Shown: in pieces, positions 8,063-63,934 of the stretch
Numbering within the stretch: the first letter of the stretch is position 1
Layout of the letters: every line of letters starts with the position of its first letter
From: Streptomyces capitiformicae
GTDB taxonomy: Bacteria; Actinomycetota; Actinomycetes; Streptomycetales; Streptomycetaceae
Assembly: GCF_002214185.1 (NCBI RefSeq)
Contig: NZ_CP022161.1
Coordinates: 2,045,767 to 2,109,766 of the forward strand
Direction of reading: 5' to 3'
Length of the DNA stretch: 64,000 nucleotides
Notes under the pieces: model-generated
Told to the model about the DNA's origin: nothing
What the model saw: only the letters and a program-made list of their open reading frames with translations
Database searches by the model: none
Position numbers and translations under genes: made by a program

Positions 8063-9007
8063 GTGGCCGCCCGGGACGACAGCCGGCGCGATGCCGAGTA
8101 CGACGGTGCCGAGTACAGCAGCGCCGAGCACGACGGCGGCGAACACGCCGGTGCCGAATACGACGGCATGGACGCCTTGATGGCCGTGCTGACGGACGAA
8201 CCGCTGCCCGAAGAAGCCCTGGCCGACGCCGAGTTCATGGCCGCCCGGCAGTCGGCCGCCACCGACGTCGCCCTGCTGAGGGAGCAGCTGGGGCTGATCG
8301 CCGAGGCTGCCATCTCCGGGACGGGGGAGGAGTGGGCGGAGGCCGCGGATCCGCCGGGGCGACTCACGGCCGCGCGGCCGGGGGACGCGGCCGGCACCGA
8401 GACGGGCCCCGGTCGCGGGCCCGAGCCCGAGGCGGCCCCCGTCCCGCCGGTGAGGCCCCTGCCGACGCGGCCCGCCCGCCCCCGGCGCCATCGCCGCGCC
8501 CTCTCCCTGGCCTTCGGCACCCTCGCGGCCGCGGCCGCCGCCACCGTCGTCGTCGGCCTGGGCTGGGTCGTCGTGCAGTCGGCCGGCGGGGCGAACACGA
8601 CGGCGTCGGACTCGGGCGTGGCCCAGAAGGACAGCGACCTCGGCACGGACAGCGGGGGGAACACCGACGAGAGCGGCAGCCTCAGGACCGAGGGGTACAT
8701 CGCCTGCGCCCGCCTGATCGTCGAGGGCACCGTCGTCTCCCTGGAACCCGTCCCCGGCACCCAACAGGACCGGGTCACCCTCGACGTCGACCGCTACTAC
8801 AAGCCGGACAGGGGCGCCGACGAGATCGTCTTCCCGATGGACGAGGACGTCGACCCTCGCCTGAAGGTGGGCGACCACGTCCTGATCGGCATCCCCCGCG
8901 ACACCGCCGAGCCCGACATCTGGACGACGGATGAGGAGGACATCGCCCACGACCGGGCCTGGATCAAGGAGGCACTGGCCGACGCGGAGGGCCTGACATG
9001 TGAGTAA
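8063..9007 (+). CDS. Single-pass membrane protein cotranscribed with sigma factor; possible anti-sigma factor
   Basis: A 314-residue protein with an acidic cytoplasmic part, one membrane segment at about residues 148-173 (ALSLAFGTLAAAAAATVVVG) and an extracytoplasmic domain of about 110 residues containing ACARLIVEGTVVSLEPVPG and VGDHVLIGIP, which reads like a small beta-barrel. The first 35 residues are degenerate repeats of the form (A/G)E(Y/H)DG. The GTG start follows the sigma stop by one base, so coupling is very likely. Topology and position suggest an anti-sigma or sensor role, but no zinc-binding anti-sigma motif (HxxxCxxC) is seen. Function is inferred from context only. Confidence 0.75.
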   Translation: MAARDDSRRDAEYDGAEYSSAEHDGGEHAGAEYDGMDALMAVLTDEPLPEEALADAEFMAARQSAATDVALLREQLGLIAEAAISGTGEEWAEAADPPGRLTAARPGDAAGTETGPGRGPEPEAAPVPPVRPLPTRPARPRRHRRALSLAFGTLAAAAAATVVVGLGWVVVQSAGGANTTASDSGVAQKDSDLGTDSGGNTDESGSLRTEGYIACARLIVEGTVVSLEPVPGTQQDRVTLDVDRYYKPDRGADEIVFPMDEDVDPRLKVGDHVLIGIPRDTAEPDIWTTDEEDIAHDRAWIKEALADAEGLTCE

Positions 9008-9031
9008 GCGGAGGGCCTGACATGTGAGTAG
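8984..9031 (+). repeat. 24-bp tandem duplication across the stop codon
   Basis: Two adjacent 24-base units beginning GCGGAGGGCCTGACATG occupy 8984-9007 and 9008-9031 and differ only in the last base. The first contains the end of the membrane-protein gene including its stop. It looks like a recent slippage duplication. Confidence 0.9.
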
Positions 9032-44602: not shown

Positions 44603-45274
44603 ATGCGCTTCAACCGGATGCTGCTCTCCACCACCCTGGTGATCGTCGCCCTGGTGCTTCAGGTGAGCGTCCTTGCCCGCCTCCACCTCCCGGGCGCCGT
44701 ACCTGACTTGGTACTCCTCACCGTGCTCGGCCTCGCCCTGGTCTACGGCCATGTCGGCGGCGCGCTGATCGGCTTCGGCGCCGGGCTGCTGTCCGACCTC
44801 GCCCCGCCCGCCGACCACGCCGCCGGGCGGTACGCCCTGGTGCTGTGCGTCATCGGCTACCTCGCGGGGCTGGCGAAGCCCGAGACCGGCCGGCTCAAGT
44901 CGGCGACCGGACCGATGGCCGTGGTCGTCGTCGCCGCGCTCGGCTCGACCCTCCTGTACGCCGGTGTCGGCGCCCTCGTCGGCGACGACGCGGCCCGCCA
45001 TGTCGGCCTTCCCAGCCTGCTGTTCACGGCCGTCCTGTACGACCTGCTGCTCGCGCCGTTCGTCGTCCCCGGCCTCATGGCGCTCGCCCGACGCGCCGAG
45101 AACGATCCGCTCGCCGACACCAACAACGCGGCCAAGGCGGCCGATGTCTCCTCGGGCTGGCTCTCCTCCGGGACCGGCCTGCGCATCGGCGGCCAACGCG
45201 GCGGACTCCGCCTGAAGGCCGCGCGCTCCCGGGTCGCCCGGGCGGGCCGCATCAAGGGGGTCAAGCGGCTGTGA
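44603..45274 (+). CDS. mreD: MreD, cell-shape membrane protein
   Basis: A 223-residue protein with about five membrane helices (LLSTTLVIVALVLQVSVLAR, PDLVLLTVLGLALVYGHVGG, GFGAGLLSDLAPPAD, and others), the normal MreD layout, and an unusual basic cytoplasmic tail (LKAARSRVARAGRIKGVKRL). Its TGA overlaps, as GTGA, the GTG start of the next small frame. It works with MreC in the elongation/spore-wall complex. Confidence 0.93.
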   Translation: MRFNRMLLSTTLVIVALVLQVSVLARLHLPGAVPDLVLLTVLGLALVYGHVGGALIGFGAGLLSDLAPPADHAAGRYALVLCVIGYLAGLAKPETGRLKSATGPMAVVVVAALGSTLLYAGVGALVGDDAARHVGLPSLLFTAVLYDLLLAPFVVPGLMALARRAENDPLADTNNAAKAADVSSGWLSSGTGLRIGGQRGGLRLKAARSRVARAGRIKGVKRL

Positions 45275-45519
45275 CGACACATCAGGCTCGTTCGTCCCAG
45301 GCTCGTTCATCCCCGGCTCGTTCGTCCCAGGCTCGTTCACCCCAGGCTGGTTCGTCCCAGGCTCGTTCACCCCAGGCTGGTTCGTCGCAGGCTCGATCGT
45401 CTCAGGCTCGTTCGGCGGGCATGGGAACCGATCGTGGTCGAGCGGTGTACTCCAATTACCTGAATCACGTGAATGACCTGAATCACGTGAAGCACGTGCA
45501 TCACCCGTACACGCACTGA
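45271..45519 (+). CDS. 82-residue ORF with QARSS pentapeptide repeats between mreD and mrdA
   Basis: The GTG at 45271 overlaps the mreD stop (GTGA) and the TGA ends 12 bases before the mrdA GTG. The protein is nine tandem pentapeptides (QARSS with variants PARSS, QARSP, QAGSS, QARSA), then a linker and a tail rich in N, H and V (NYLNHVNDLNHVKHVHHPYT). It has no signal or membrane helix. Coupling at both ends suggests translation, but the frame might simply be a minisatellite passively open between two genes. No family is recognised. Confidence 0.55.
   Translation: MTTHQARSSQARSSPARSSQARSPQAGSSQARSPQAGSSQARSSQARSAGMGTDRGRAVYSNYLNHVNDLNHVKHVHHPYTH
45283..45417 (+). repeat. Minisatellite, nine 15-bp units
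   Basis: Unit consensus CAGGCTCGTTCGTCC, nine head-to-tail copies with one to three changes each; unit length is a multiple of three so the frame is kept. After it, at 45465-45505, the palindrome CACGTG occurs three times within a degenerate repeat of AATCACGTGAATGACCTG type. Confidence 0.95.
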
Positions 45520-45531
45520 GAGGGGGAGGCA

Positions 45532-48048
45532 GTGACCAACATCCCGGAGACCGGGCGGACCCCACGGGTCCAGATCCGGCTCGTCATCATCCAGATCCTC
45601 GTCTTCTCCCTCCTGGGCACCCTCGGCGGCCGCCTCTGGTACCTCCAGATCCGCGAAGGCGACGCCTACGCCAAGGAGGCATCGGGCAACCACGTCCAGC
45701 AGGTCGTGCAGCCCGCCGTGCGCGGCTCGATCCTCGACGCGCGCGGCGTCCCCATCGCCGACAACGAGACCCGGCTGGTGGTCTCCGCCTCCCGCACCGA
45801 GCTGCTGAAGATGGACGACGACGGCAAGGCCGTCCTCACCAAGCTCGCCGGCGTCCTGGACATGAAGCCCAAGGAGGTCATGGACAAGGTCCGCCTGTGC
45901 GACTCGGAGACGCCGCAGCCGTGTTGGAACGGCTCGCCGTACCAGCCGATCCCCATCACCGACGAGGCCACCGCCAAGCAGGCCCTGCAGATCCGCGAGC
46001 GCTCCGAGGACTTCCCCGGCATCACGGCGGAGCCCCAGGCCGTCCGCCGGTACGCCAGCCCGGGCGGCTCCAACACCGCGCAGGTCCTCGGCTATCTCTC
46101 CCCGGTCACCGACGAGGAGATCACCAAGGCCCAGGACACCGACTCGCCGTACCTGCGCTCCGACCAGGTCGGCCGCAGCGGCCTGGAGCGCCGGTACGAC
46201 AAGGAGCTGCGCGGCAAGGCAGGCGTCACCCGCTACGAGGTCGACAATCTCGGCCGCGTCATCGGCGAGGCCGAGTCGGACCCCGCCGAGCCCGGCGCCA
46301 ACCTCGTCACCAGCATCGACGCCCGAGTGCAGCGCATCGCCGAGTACGAGCTCAACGAGGCGATGAAGGAAGCCCGCAAGCAGATGGACCGCAACACGGG
46401 GACGAACTACAAGGCCGACTCCGGTGCCGTCGTCGTCATGGAGGCCAAAACGGGCCGCGTCGTCGCCATGGCCTCCAACCCGGACTACGACCCCAACGCC
46501 TGGGTCGGCGGCATCTCCGCCAAGGACTACGCCAAGCTCACCGGCAAGAAGTCCAACTACCCGCTGCTGAACCGCGCGATCCAGGGCCAGTCGGCCCCCG
46601 GCTCCATCTTCAAGGTGGTCCCGACCGCCGCCGCGGTGAACGCGGGCTACTCCTTCAACGGCCCGTATGAATGCTCCAGTTCGTACTCGATCGGCGGCCA
46701 GGTCTTCAAGAACTTCGAGTCCAAGGGCTACGGGGCGATCAGCCTCGGCAAGGCTTTGGAGGTTTCCTGCGACACCGTCTTCTACCGCCTCTCCCACGAG
46801 GAGTGGAAGCGTGACGGTGGCATCAAGCCGAAGAAGAACGCCAACGACTGGTTCTACAAGACCGCCCACCAGTTCGGCCTCGGCGCCGAGACCGGCATCG
46901 ACCTGCCCAACGAGGTCACCGGCCGCATCCCCGACCGCCAGTGGAAGCAGGACTACTGGAAGGCCAACAAGGACGCCTGGTGCAAGACCGGCAAGAAGGG
47001 CGGCACGTACGCGGAGCAGATCGCGTACGAGAACTGCCTCGAAGGCAACCGCATGCGCGCAGGTGACTCCGTCAACTACTCCATCGGCCAGGGCGACACC
47101 CTCGTCACCCCCATCCAGATGGCCACCATCTACGGGGCCATCTCCAACGGCGGCACCCTCTACGACCCCACCGTCGGCAAGGCGATCATCAGCGCCGACG
47201 GCAAGAGCGTGCAGGAGATCGATCCCAAGTCGCACGGCAAGCTGCCGATAGACAAGACCACGCTGGCCAAGATGGACGACGCCCTCGAGGGAGTCGCCAC
47301 CCGCGGTACGGCAGCCTGGCGTTTCCAGGGCTGGCCGCAGGACGAGATCCCGATGCACGCCAAGACGGGTACCGCCGAGGTCTACGGCAAGCAGACGACG
47401 TCCTGGTTCGCCACGTACACCAAGGACTACTCGATCGTCATGACGATCTCCCAGGGTGGTACGGGCTCCGGCGCCTCGGCGCCCGCCGTGCGCAAGCTCT
47501 ACAACGCGCTGTACGGCGTCTCCGAGGACGGCAAGATCGACAAGAAGAAGGCGCTGCTGCCGACCCCGCAGAAGGGCCTGCCGAAGATCGAGTCCGACGG
47601 CTCGATCGACGCCCCGAAGCTGGAGACGTACCCGCCGAAGAAGACCGAGGAGGAACTGGCCGAGGAGGAGGCCCAGACGGTGGCCGCCGGCCCGGAGGCC
47701 CAGCCGGTGTCCTTCGAGCAGGGTATGGGTGCCGTGATCGCCGTACCGGGCACCTGGGCCGTCGTCACCGAGCGAGGCGAGGGAGCCGTGGACACCGACC
47801 AACCGGCGGCGATCGTCAGCACACGCGGCGGCAACGGCAACCGCGCGGCGCGACGGCGTACCGGCTGCGGGCGCGCCGCAAAGGGGCGCGGGGCTGTATC
47901 GACATGCGGTTCCGCCGCGATGGGGGTCCCCCCGGTCGAGCGAAGCCGAGACTGGGGGAGCGACCAGCCACGACGACGCCGCAGCCGACCGACGACGGCG
48001 CGTCTCGGCACCCAAAGCGGAGCGCTCACGCGGAGGACGTCCGTATGA
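45532..48048 (+). CDS. mrdA: Penicillin-binding protein 2 (MrdA), elongation-type transpeptidase, with repeat-derived C-terminus
   Basis: An 838-residue class B PBP that cross-links peptidoglycan with RodA. One N-terminal membrane helix (about 14-32, LVIIQILVFSLLGTLGGRL), a PBP dimerisation domain, then the transpeptidase: S358-IFK in SAPGSIFKVV, SCD in LEVSCDTVF and KTG at 611-613. After an acidic linker (TEEELAEEEAQTVAAGPEAQ) the last roughly 55 residues, from about 783, are translated from the dispersed repeats at 47877-47962 and are arginine/serine rich without PBP similarity. The stop overlaps the rodA ATG by ATGA. GTG start has GAGGGGGAGGC upstream. Confidence 0.93.
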   Translation: MTNIPETGRTPRVQIRLVIIQILVFSLLGTLGGRLWYLQIREGDAYAKEASGNHVQQVVQPAVRGSILDARGVPIADNETRLVVSASRTELLKMDDDGKAVLTKLAGVLDMKPKEVMDKVRLCDSETPQPCWNGSPYQPIPITDEATAKQALQIRERSEDFPGITAEPQAVRRYASPGGSNTAQVLGYLSPVTDEEITKAQDTDSPYLRSDQVGRSGLERRYDKELRGKAGVTRYEVDNLGRVIGEAESDPAEPGANLVTSIDARVQRIAEYELNEAMKEARKQMDRNTGTNYKADSGAVVVMEAKTGRVVAMASNPDYDPNAWVGGISAKDYAKLTGKKSNYPLLNRAIQGQSAPGSIFKVVPTAAAVNAGYSFNGPYECSSSYSIGGQVFKNFESKGYGAISLGKALEVSCDTVFYRLSHEEWKRDGGIKPKKNANDWFYKTAHQFGLGAETGIDLPNEVTGRIPDRQWKQDYWKANKDAWCKTGKKGGTYAEQIAYENCLEGNRMRAGDSVNYSIGQGDTLVTPIQMATIYGAISNGGTLYDPTVGKAIISADGKSVQEIDPKSHGKLPIDKTTLAKMDDALEGVATRGTAAWRFQGWPQDEIPMHAKTGTAEVYGKQTTSWFATYTKDYSIVMTISQGGTGSGASAPAVRKLYNALYGVSEDGKIDKKKALLPTPQKGLPKIESDGSIDAPKLETYPPKKTEEELAEEEAQTVAAGPEAQPVSFEQGMGAVIAVPGTWAVVTERGEGAVDTDQPAAIVSTRGGNGNRAARRRTGCGRAAKGRGAVSTCGSAAMGVPPVERSRDWGSDQPRRRRSRPTTARLGTQSGALTRRTSV
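47877..47962. repeat. Composite dispersed repeat (families A and B) inside the 3' end of mrdA
   Basis: GGGGCGCGGGGCTGTATCGA (from 47884) then ATGCGGTTCCGCCGCGATG is family A variant; GGGGGTCCCCCCGGTCGAGC then GAAGCCGAGACTGGGGGAG (47922-47960) is family B in reverse orientation relative to 41995. Both are read in frame as the MrdA tail. Confidence 0.85.
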
Positions 48049-56086: not shown

Positions 56087-59000
56087 ATGCCCGAACAGAT
56101 CGAACCCGTGGAGTCCACGCAGGGCTCCGAACACAACACGCCCAGCGACACCCTGCCGCCGCGCCGTCGCCGCCGTGCCGCGTCCCGCCCGGCGGGCCCG
56201 CCGGCGGCCGGCTCCGAAGCGCCCGCCGAGACCACCGCGCCGACCGTACCGGCCGCGGGGGCAATGGACCTCGCTGCCGCGGAGCAGACTGAGCCGACCG
56301 AGGTGGACGAGACCGCCGCCGAGGTCGAAGAGACCGAGGAGGCCGCAGCGGCTGAAGAGGCCGCTGCCGTGGTCGCTGAGGCGCCCGCCGGCGTCGAGGA
56401 GGCCGCGCCCGCCGGTCGTCCGCGCCGTCGTGCGTCCCGCCGGGTGTCCGCGCCCGCCGGTCGTCCGCGCCGTCGTGCGTCCCGCCGGGTGTCCGCGCCC
56501 GCCGGTGCGCCGGAGGGGGCCGAGGCCGCCGAGACCGTGGTGCCGGCCGTCGCTGCTGAGACCAGCGAGCCTGAGGCCGCCGCTGTGGTCGCTGAGGCGC
56601 CCGCCGGCGTCGAGGAGGCCGCGCCCGCCGGTCGTCCGCGCCGTCGTGCGTCCCGCCGGGTGTCCGCGCCCGCCGGTGCGCCCGAGGCCGCCGAGGTCGT
56701 GGAGAGTGCCGTGCCGGCCGCCGCCGAGCCCGAGGCTGCCGCTCCGGCGCCCGCCGCCGCAGAGGAGGCCGCGCCCGCCGGTCGTGCGCGTCGCCGTGCG
56801 TCCCGCCGGGTGTCCGCGCCCGCCGGTGAGCCGAAGGCCGCCGAGGTCGCGGCCACCGCGCCGGAGACCGTGGAGGCTTCGACAAAGGTCGTGGAAGCCC
56901 TCGTCGCCGCTGAGGAGCCCGTCGCCGTGCCGGTCGAGGAGGCCGCGGAGGAGGCCGCGCCGCGCCGTACGCGTCGTCGTGCCACGCGGCGGGTGGCCGC
57001 GCCCGCCGGTACGCCGGTCGAGGAGTCCGTCGAAGAGCAGGCGGAGCCCGTCGCCGCTGCCGTGGAGAGCAAGCCCGCCCCGGCCGCAGAGGTCGAGACC
57101 GAGGAGGCCGGGCCGCGGCGTACGCGTCGTCGGGCCACGCGCAAGGCCGCCGGTGGGTTCTCCGAGCCCGCGGCGCCGATCGCCGAGGAGACCCCGGCGC
57201 GGCCCGCGCGCCCCGCCATGGCCGTGTTCCAGGCTCCGGTGTTCACCGAGCCGATGTTCCAGACGCCGGAGCGGGCGGCCGCGCAGGCCGCCGCCGAGGC
57301 GGAGGCGGAGACGGAGACCGCCGAGGTCGTCGAGAGCGCCGAGGCCACCGAGTTCGGCGGGTTCGCCGAGGAGGAGGGCACCGGCGGGGCGCGTCGTCGC
57401 CGTCGCCGTCGGGGTGAGCCCGCCGAGGCGGAGCAGCCTGCGGCCGCCACCGTGGTGGCCGACGAGCCGGAGGAGAACGAGGAGCCCGAAGAGGGCGCCG
57501 AAGGTGACGAGTTCGGCGAGGAGGAGTCCACCGGGTCGCGTCGTCGCCGTCGCCGGGGTGGCCGTCGCCGCCGTCGGGGCGAGTCGGCCGAGGCCGAGGG
57601 TGAGGCCGCCGAGGGCGAGGAACTCGCCGCCGAGCAGGCCGCGCAGGACGCCGAGGACACCGCCGAGCAGGTGGACGAGGACGCCGAGGACGAGGCGGAC
57701 GAGCGCGACGAGGCCGGTGGTTCCGGCTCCAGCAGCAGCCGTCGGCGCCGTCGCCGTCGTCGTCGCGCCGGTGACTCGGGTACGGAGGCCGAGCCGGCGT
57801 CCGACGACCCCGAGCGCACGGTCGTGAAGGTCCGTGAGCCGCGCGAGCGGCGCGCGAAGGACGCCGAGCCGTCCGACGAGGTGCAGTCCATCAAGGGCTC
57901 GACCCGTCTGGAGGCCAAGAAGCAGCGGCGCCGGGAAGGCCGTGAGCAGGGGCGTCGTCGCGTCCCGATCATCACCGAGGCCGAGTTCCTCGCCCGCCGT
58001 GAGGCCGTCGAGCGCGTCATGGTCGTCCGCCAGAGCGGCGAGCGCACCCAGATCGGCGTCCTCGAGGACAACGTGCTCGTCGAGCACTACGTCAACAAGG
58101 AGCAGTCGACCTCGTACGTCGGCAACGTCTACCTCGGCAAGGTGCAGAACGTGCTGCCGTCGATGGAGGCCGCCTTCATCGACATCGGCAAGGGCCGCAA
58201 CGCCGTCCTGTACGCCGGTGAGGTCAACTTCGAGGCACTGGGCATGGCCAACGGCCCGCGGCGCATCGAAAGCGCGCTCAAGTCCGGCCAGTCCGTGCTC
58301 GTCCAGGTGACGAAGGACCCGATCGGGCACAAGGGCGCGCGTCTGACCAGCCAGGTCTCGCTGCCGGGCCGCTACCTGGTCTACGTCCCCGAGGGGTCGA
58401 TGACCGGCATCAGCCGCAAGCTGCCCGACACCGAGCGGGCCCGGCTGAAGACCATCCTCAAGAAGATCGTCCCCGAGGACGCGGGCGTCATCGTGCGCAC
58501 CGCCGCCGAGGGCGCGAGCGAGGACGAGCTGCGCCGTGACGTCGAGCGGCTGCAGGCGCAGTGGGGGGACATCCAGAAGAAGGCCAAGAGCGGTGGCAGC
58601 TCAAGTGCGCCGTCGCTGCTCTACGGCGAGCCGGACATGACCGTCCGGGTGGTCCGCGACATCTTCAACGAGGACTTCTCCAAGGTCATCGTCAGCGGCG
58701 AGGACGCGTGGGAGACCATCCACGGGTACGTCTCCCATGTCGCTCCCGACCTGGCGGACCGCCTGCAGAAGTGGACCTCCGAGGTCGACGTCTTCGCGAC
58801 GTACCGCATCGACGAGCAGCTGATGAAGGCGCTGGACCGCAAGGTGTGGCTGCCCAGCGGTGGTTCGCTGGTGATCGACAAGACCGAGGCCATGGTCGTG
58901 GTCGACGTCAACACCGGCAAGTTCACCGGCCAGGGCGGCAACCTGGAGGAGACGGTCACCAGGAACAACCTGGAGGCGGCCGAGGAGATCGTGCGCCAGC

Positions 59001-63879: not shown

Positions 63880-63933
63880 CCCCGAGCCATCGGGCGCCGA
63901 CATACACCCCGAGCCATCGGGCGCCGACATACA
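63880..63933 (+). repeat. 27-bp tandem duplication
   Basis: Two identical 27-base units beginning CCCCGAGCCATCGGGCGCC at 63880 and 63907. Confidence 0.9.
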
Positions 63934-63934
63934 C

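What the first reader, a model, noticed from the sequence alone, without database searches (positions are those of the whole stretch)
45271..45519. Minisatellite-encoded, doubly coupled ORF between mreD and mrdA
Nine 15-bp units (CAGGCTCGTTCGTCC type) sit exactly between two essential morphogenesis genes and stay open in one frame of 82 codons. The start overlaps the mreD stop (GTGA) and the stop lies 12 bases before the mrdA start, so ribosomes would travel mreD-orf-mrdA. Unit length is a multiple of three, so copy-number change keeps the frame. It could encode a QARSS peptide, act as a variable spacer tuning mrdA translation, or be neutral. The tail also holds three CACGTG palindromes.
Basis: partly seen in the sequence, partly recalled or inferred. 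Interest (0 to 1): 0.72.

Follow-up and report, generated by a model that had tools for sequence, protein, structure and literature searches.

The report
Translated bridge between mreD and mrdA
Between two cell-wall genes of a Streptomyces lies a short reading frame, here swollen by a 15-base repeat, that related species keep open and joined to both genes while its protein sequence drifts freely, so it is probably there to be translated rather than to make a useful peptide.

Summary
In detail: nine 15-bp units (45283-45417) lie inside an 82-codon frame (45271-45519) that starts on the mreD stop (GTGA) and ends 12 bases before mrdA. The array is private: 1 of 156 long mreD-mrdA spacers has it. 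The frame is not. Of 190 distinct Streptomyces loci pooled, 8 have mreD and mrdA directly overlapping; the other 182 (156 of 156 spacers of at least 60 nt, 26 of 26 shorter) can be read from the mreD stop to mrdA, as one ORF or two coupled mini-cistrons, including 43 of 43 held-out long spacers. The mreB-mreC spacer passes in 23 of 119; the other two mreD-mrdA frames in 80 and 51 of 113. mreD codons at the start keep a Shine-Dalgarno run and an NTG start. Yet ORF substitutions fall evenly on codon positions (140/147/134; mreD 70/48/217). Strong arrays here are mostly multiples of three (14 of 16; control 0 of 8). Best reading: a bridging cistron whose content is free, coupling mreD to mrdA; the array is an in-frame passenger. 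Translation is inferred, not measured. The tail also holds an ECF-type promoter-like element.

The parts
44603..45274 (+). mreD, 223 aa, stop TGA 45272-45274
   Evidence: TIGR03426
45254..45260 (+). AAGGGGG, Shine-Dalgarno-like run inside mreD, 10 nt before the GTG of the bridging ORF
   Evidence: the Gly codon at mreD position -5 is GGG in 168, GGA in 14 and GGC in 3 of 185 loci with Gly there (5 more have Ser), against 76.5% GGC elsewhere in mreD
45271..45519 (+). bridging ORF (82 codons, GTG start overlapping the mreD stop as GTGA, TGA 45517-45519)
   Evidence: kept as an open, chained frame in 182 of 182 pooled Streptomyces loci with a gap
45283..45417 (+). nine 15-bp units (CAGGCTCGTTCGTCC type) inside the bridging ORF; units 4-5 recur as units 6-7 with one difference
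   Evidence: 1 of 156 long spacers has it
45423..45449 (+). GGGAACC-N13-CGGTGTA, ECF-sigma-type promoter-like element inside the ORF tail
   Evidence: same element begins 35 nt before the start of an ECF sigma gene in the same genome (L269/L273), and a longer form does so in G288 and G347; 6 hits in the 10.99-Mb genome, reversed control 0
45454..45505 (+). 9/18-bp tail repeat with three CACGTG
45520..45529 (+). Shine-Dalgarno-like run of mrdA (GAGGGGGAGG), directly after the stop of the bridging ORF
45532..48048 (+). mrdA (PBP2), whose stop overlaps the start of the next ORF (rodA-type, named by inspection) as ATGA (48045-48048)

Best explanation
The ORF is a bridging cistron: a stretch between mreD and mrdA that is kept translatable, not kept for its product. 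A ribosome that ends mreD at TGA restarts at the overlapping GTG (helped by the AAGGGGG run in the last mreD codons), reads the spacer, and ends on or next to the mrdA start or its Shine-Dalgarno, so that mrdA (and the next gene, which overlaps mrdA by ATGA here) stays coupled to mreD although up to 311 nt of variable sequence lie between. The 15-bp array is a minisatellite that grew in the free part of this spacer; it persists because its unit is a multiple of three without stops. The spacer DNA also carries a promoter-like element, so the region is probably both an internal promoter and a translated bridge. Shown by sequence: open frame, chained ends, selected start context, mostly in-frame strong arrays, no amino-acid constraint in the first ORF. 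Inferred: that it is translated, that coupling (or protection from Rho polarity) is the reason, and that the element is a working promoter.
For: Chain from the mreD stop to mrdA: 113 of 113 long spacers against 82.3 +- 4.3 in dinucleotide shuffles; 40 of 40 less redundant representatives against 30.5 +- 2.4. Held-out loci chosen by MreD only: 43 of 43 (frames B 25, C 20); six more junctions, chosen by DNA similarity and not pooled: 6 of 6. Control junction mreB-mreC: 23 of 119; other mreD-mrdA frames 80 and 51 of 113. Pooled: 8 direct overlaps, 26 of 26 short, 156 of 156 long; the first ORF's stop overlaps the mrdA start in 62, lies 15-25 nt before it in 90, at +5 in 3, or is followed by a second mini-cistron in 27. 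Last mreD codon CTG 183, CTT 7, CTC 0 of 190, while CTC is 47.2% and CTT 0.5% of 4594 other mreD Leu codons. SD-making GGG at codon -5. Codon-position substitutions 140/147/134 in the ORF against 70/48/217 in mreD, 43 disjoint pairs. Strong arrays: 14 of 16 periods are multiples of three, control 0 of 8. DNA that is the same at 48 of 51 bases (L148, L100) is read in different phases, yet the frame is open in both.
Against: No ribosome-profiling or mass-spectrometry data were available. GC-rich spacers are often open by chance (about 73% pass under shuffling), so the case rests on the whole set, not on this locus alone. Spacers are related by descent, and part of the first set was chosen by similarity to this spacer's DNA. 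ORF1 codon usage is not like mreD (G+C at third positions 75% against 95%). Spacer-length differences between close pairs are multiples of three in only 19 of 31 (control 6 of 15), and indels inside aligned ORFs in only 37 of 83. The second mini-cistron, where present, is not content-free: 24 of 27 share an HPSP-like peptide and 21 aligned copies vary by 184/92/282 over codon positions, a mild third-position excess. The start-context signals are also present in direct-overlap species (GGG 8 of 8), so they may be older than the bridge. mrdA has an SD-like run of its own here and in many species.
Confidence: 0.8

Rival explanations
1. The ORF is kept open mainly to shield the transcript from Rho-dependent polarity: ribosomes cover a long spacer so that RNA polymerase reaches mrdA and the next gene. 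Restart at mrdA is secondary.
For: Same sequence signature as coupling. Polarity through Rho loading on untranslated RNA is described in a review (PMC12548453, passages seen).
Against: Stops sit at regular places next to the mrdA start or SD, and short spacers of 13-19 nt are also in phase; shielding alone would not need either.
Confidence: 0.3
2. The ORF makes a functional small protein that acts in the spore-wall complex, with a fast-evolving repeat domain.
For: Open in all pooled loci with a gap; some clades share similar tails (for example GTDHRRAVYSMYRHH in near relatives); the second mini-cistron of 27 loci is conserved.
Against: Flat codon-position substitutions in the first ORF; shared tails follow a DNA element that other species read in another phase; length 6 to 98 codons; missing where mreD and mrdA overlap directly (8 of 190); no relative at E <= 0.01 in the protein search.
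Confidence: 0.07
3. The spacer is only a promoter region and the open frame is a by-product of base composition.
For: A promoter-like element is present, and shuffled spacers pass in about 73% of cases.
Against: 156 of 156 against chance, held-out success, frame specificity, the mreB-mreC control that mostly fails, and codon choices in mreD that keep the SD and start.
Confidence: 0.1
4. Repeat number is a dial that tunes mrdA expression in this strain.
For: The array is in frame and holds a recent-looking 30-bp duplication.
Against: A unit of 15 cannot switch the frame; the array is absent from the other 155 long spacers; repeats in other species have other units. Strains of this species were not compared.
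Confidence: 0.08

Closest known systems
Termination-reinitiation coupling of overlapping gene pairs (-4 nt ATGA/GTGA)
   Same: GTGA overlap at mreD and, in 62 of 182 loci with a gap, an overlap of the ORF stop with the mrdA start.
   Different: Here the pair is separated by up to 311 nt and an extra cistron fills the gap. One study reports that distances of about 20 nt almost completely abolish coupling (PMC10666635, abstract seen), which would make a bridge necessary if coupling is to be kept.
Short upstream ORF that delivers a ribosome; bicistronic design
   Same: A short ORF whose role would be to bring ribosomes to the next gene (idea reviewed in PMC12548453, passages seen).
   Different: It sits between two operon genes, chained at both ends, in 182 of 190 pooled Streptomyces loci, with first-ORF lengths of 6 to 98 codons and no fixed sequence.
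MIRUs of mycobacteria
   Same: [quoted passage not shown] L031, with two head-to-tail 56-bp mini-cistrons each ending in ATGA, is closest.
   Different: MIRUs are an interspersed family thought to be mobile; this array pattern occurs once in the genome and strong arrays of other species have their own units. The 15-bp units are parts of one frame, not cistrons.
Sigma-E (ECF) promoter of the S. coelicolor mreB gene
   Same: GGAAC-type -35; mreB is a sigma-E target there (PMC6767563, passages seen).
   Different: Listed there for sco2611-2609 (mreBCD), not inside mreD-mrdA; the element here ends CGGTGTA and matches the upstream region of another ECF gene.

Membership tests
Termination-reinitiation coupled gene pair | Start codon overlapping or very near the upstream stop | tested here: met
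   GTGA at 45271-45274; GTGA or TTGA in 190 of 190 pooled loci
Termination-reinitiation coupled gene pair | Stop of the ORF overlapping or near the next start | tested here: met
   12 nt between them here; 182 of 182 loci with a gap end between -25 and +6 of the mrdA start, 27 of them through a second mini-cistron
Termination-reinitiation coupled gene pair | Translation of the downstream gene depends on the upstream one | not testable with these tools
   needs a reporter experiment
MIRU | Same repeat family at many genomic places | tested here: not met
   the pattern CAGGCNCGNTCNTCCCAGGC occurs once in the genome
[quoted passage not shown]
   -4 at mreD, 12 nt before mrdA in this genome
Functional small-protein gene | Excess of third-position change | tested here: not met
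   first ORF 140/147/134 over codon positions, chi-square p 0.74; mreD 70/48/217. The second mini-cistron of 27 other loci, absent here, shows a mild excess (184/92/282)
Attenuator leader peptide | Residue-specific codons plus a terminator or structured RNA | tested here: inconclusive
   sequence variable among species; no Rfam match at E up to 1 for 45100-45700; folding alternatives not tested
ECF-sigma promoter | -35/-10 pair shared with the upstream region of an ECF gene | tested here: met
   GGGAACC-N13-CGGTGTA before the ECF gene L269/L273 and in the ORF tail
ECF-sigma promoter | Transcription start and dependence on the sigma factor | not testable with these tools
   no transcript data

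The most novel reading that the evidence does not exclude
A class of genes selected for being translated and for nothing they encode: in high-GC operons, spacers that hold internal promoters or grow by slippage are kept as content-free bridging cistrons so that coupling of morphogenesis genes survives. mreD-mrdA is a genus-wide case in which minisatellites are filtered by reading frame.
Probability: 0.5. Interest if true: 0.78.

Novelty: new variant of a known kind. Interest (0 to 1): 0.62.

Why it matters
It would be a clear natural case in which selection acts on the act of translation across a spacer, not on the peptide. It offers about 180 natural variants for testing how far coupling or shielding from polarity explains the design of bacterial operons, and warns that an open, syntenic, coupled small ORF is not by itself evidence of a functional small protein. 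It would also explain why the strong minisatellites found at this place are mostly of triplet period.

Tried and rejected
Peptide function of the first ORF: rejected as the main reading, because substitutions are flat over codon positions, the same DNA element is read in different phases, and a search of about 5.8 billion proteins with the ORF gave one word-sharing candidate and none at E <= 0.01. Structured RNA: no Rfam match. Mobile or interspersed repeat: the pattern occurs once in the genome. CACGTG as conserved sites: 5 of 156 long spacers hold any. Array shared by other species at this place: in two overlapping draws of 392 genomes no listed match other than the own one covers array and tail; 8 array-like loci and 3 (L198-L200) were looked at and none lies by mreD and mrdA; weaker array-like matches without a fetched locus were not looked at.

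A first codon-position comparison paired unrelated spacers because identity ignored gaps. (68 pairs; ORF 259/255/270) is flat too, but its mreD control was misaligned for some pairs. I rely, whose pairs were chosen by the mreD 3' end and then had to reach 80% ORF identity outside gaps; 354 off-phase columns were left out there. Its printed 'net length difference' is trivial by construction (ORF lengths are always multiples of three) and is not used.

Not done: the same test at all operon junctions; strain-level copy number; RNA folding of the spacer; structure prediction.

Full report
WHAT IS THERE. The window lies in a 10.99-Mb single-contig genome whose best named MreD matches are Streptomyces ipomoeae, Streptomyces sp. 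MA5143a and S. torulosus (95-96% identity; nearer records may have been left out). mreD (44603-45274) ends CTG TGA, which makes a GTG start overlapping the stop. From there a frame of 82 codons runs to TGA at 45517-45519, directly before GAGGGGGAGG and 12 nt before the mrdA GTG at 45532. Nine 15-bp units fill 45283-45417; the TRF score of 187 stands against a best of 65 in ten simulated windows.

IS THE ARRAY SHARED? Not in what I examined. The pattern occurs once in the genome. Two overlapping draws of 392 genus genomes (61 genomes with a match in each, the own one included) gave matches to the tail and SD or to array-like stretches, none covering both except the own locus. Eleven array-like loci that were fetched lie away from mreD and mrdA (8, 3). 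Of 156 long mreD-mrdA spacers, only this one has two or more array-like units.

IS THE FRAME SHARED? Yes. I pooled mreD-mrdA junctions, dropped loci without both genes, and collapsed identical contexts to 141. Frame A is the frame of the [GT]TG overlapping the mreD TGA. Of 113 spacers of at least 60 nt, 93 are open in A to within 25 nt of mrdA. The other 20 stop earlier, and in each a second mini-cistron of 16-22 codons starts by overlap or up to 22 nt downstream and ends on or just inside the mrdA start. So 113 of 113 give an unbroken chain, against 82.3 +- 4.3 in dinucleotide shuffles that keep the ends; 40 of 40 representatives sharing under 15% of 8-mers pass, against 30.5 +- 2.4. Reading in the other two frames gives 80 and 51 of 113, and the mreB-mreC junction of the same loci gives 23 of 119.

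HELD-OUT TEST. I then fetched 60 further junctions chosen only from the MreD match list. Eleven were identical to earlier ones; of the 49 new, 43 were long, and 43 of 43 passed (frames B 25, C 20). The last mreD codon was CTG in 49 of 49. Five divergent Streptomyces (not pooled) fit too: four long spacers end at -17 or +1, one pair overlaps directly. Six more junctions (chosen by DNA similarity, not pooled) pass, 6 of 6. In 14 loci outside the genus the arrangement was different or unclear, with mrdA starts placed only by alignment. The pooled tally is 190: 8 direct GTGA or TTGA overlaps, 26 of 26 short gaps and 156 of 156 long gaps chained. The first ORF's stop overlaps the mrdA start in 62, lies 15-25 nt before it in 90, at +5 in 3, and precedes a second mini-cistron in 27.

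THE START IS SELECTED. The last Leu codon of mreD is CTG (183) or CTT (7), never CTC, although CTC makes up 47.2% and CTT 0.5% of 4594 other Leu codons in mreD of 141 loci. CTC is the one common Leu codon that gives no ATG, GTG or TTG over the TGA. Five codons before the stop, Gly is GGG in 168, GGA in 14 and GGC in 3 of 185 (5 loci have Ser), against 76.5% GGC elsewhere in mreD; this keeps AAGGGGG 10 nt before the start. Direct-overlap species show GGG too (8 of 8), so the signal may be older than the bridge; I infer that a bridge was inserted into, or grew within, an ancestral overlap.

THE PRODUCT OF THE FIRST ORF IS NOT SELECTED. In 43 disjoint close pairs chosen by the mreD 3' end, ORF substitutions are 140/147/134 over codon positions 1/2/3 (chi-square p 0.74), while mreD shows 70/48/217 in the same pairs; a second pairing of 68 gave 259/255/270. 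G+C at third positions is 75% in the ORF and 95% in mreD. GGAAC occurs in 56 of 113 long spacers, in frame-A phase 1 in 38, phase 0 in 16 and phase 2 in 2 (some surely by chance); L100 and L148 are the same at 48 of 51 bases around it, read in different frames, both open. The second mini-cistron behaves differently: 24 of 27 share an HPSP-like peptide, and 21 copies aligned over 12 codons vary by 184/92/282 over codon positions. It may be constrained as peptide or as DNA; this genome lacks it.

REPEATS ARE MOSTLY FILTERED BY FRAME. TRF finds arrays in 40 of 156 long mreD-mrdA spacers and 29 of 119 mreB-mreC spacers. Among strong ones (score >= 60, counted by hand), 14 of 16 periods are multiples of three at mreD-mrdA (12 of 14 without this genome) and 0 of 8 at mreB-mreC (Fisher 6e-5). 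Of the two exceptions, the 56-bp pair in L031 is a whole mini-cistron with its own ATGA; the 13-bp array in L212 is unexplained. Over all scores the contrast is weaker: 26 of 47 against 14 of 33.

A PROMOTER-LIKE ELEMENT IN THE TAIL. GGGAACC-N13-CGGTGTA (45423-45449) occurs six times in the genome (reversed control 0), once beginning 35 nt before the start of an ECF sigma gene (L269/L273; NCBIfam TIGR02937 above cut-off); what the other four serve was not worked out. A longer form was found once each in 9 of 392 genomes: 6 in mreD-mrdA of this clade, 2 before the orthologous ECF gene, 1 elsewhere. Sigma-E of S. coelicolor drives mreB (PMC6767563, passages); the factor suggested here is another ECF gene. 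Function is inferred.

MECHANISM. Coupling was almost abolished at about 20 nt in the pairs tested by others (PMC10666635, abstract). A spacer of 100-300 nt that carries an internal promoter would break coupling and expose RNA to Rho; keeping it as an ORF with starts and stops at both junctions avoids both. The next junction points the same way: in this genome the mrdA frame runs 148 codons past a conserved core segment to end on the next start as ATGA, and 7 of 12 other genomes showed an ATGA overlap there with tails of 58-108 codons; the other 5 end otherwise or were not clearly aligned. Which benefit counts, coupling or anti-polarity, cannot be told here.

LITERATURE. Ten searches listed no title or abstract start that describes an ORF between mreD and pbp2 in Streptomyces; only open-licence papers are held, and I saw passages of four papers and the abstract of a fifth. 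The general idea of an upstream ORF that only delivers ribosomes, and MIRUs as a natural case, are in print (PMC12548453). Hence 'new variant of a known kind'.

Noticed in passing
48045-48048 and mrdA 3' part 47600-48048: mrdA ends on the next start as ATGA after a 148-codon tail past a conserved core segment; 7 of 12 relatives show the same overlap with tails of 58-108 codons. Possibly the same translated-bridge principle by C-terminal extension.
   Followed up: partly
L031 (G002), L009, L042, L047 and others: A second mini-cistron sits before mrdA in 27 of 156 long spacers, HPSP-like in 24, with a mild third-position excess in 21 aligned copies; in L031 it is duplicated head to tail (56-bp units, each ending in ATGA).
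   Followed up: partly
G000:C1:1636979-1637560 (L269): ECF sigma gene whose upstream GGGAACC-N13-CGGTGTA element matches the bridging ORF tail; in G288 and G347 its ortholog lies divergent to a tryptophanyl-tRNA-synthetase-like ORF (name by inspection). Six such elements in the genome may mark a small regulon.
   Followed up: partly
mreB-mreC spacers, for example L075, L029, L003: Strong minisatellites with periods not divisible by three (8, 44, 23, 26, 10, 14, 13, 19 bp) are found at this neighbouring junction.
   Followed up: partly
L212 (G131): 13-bp array (2.8 copies) in a mreD-mrdA spacer that nevertheless keeps an open frame; an exception to the triplet rule.
   Followed up: no
56403-56936: Larger tandem repeats (45 bp x 2.3 perfect; 150 bp x 2.2) of CCGCGCCCGCCGGTCGT type, scoring higher than the finding's array.
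   Followed up: no
8984-9030 and 63880-63934: Two perfect two-copy tandem repeats (24 bp and 27 bp).
   Followed up: no
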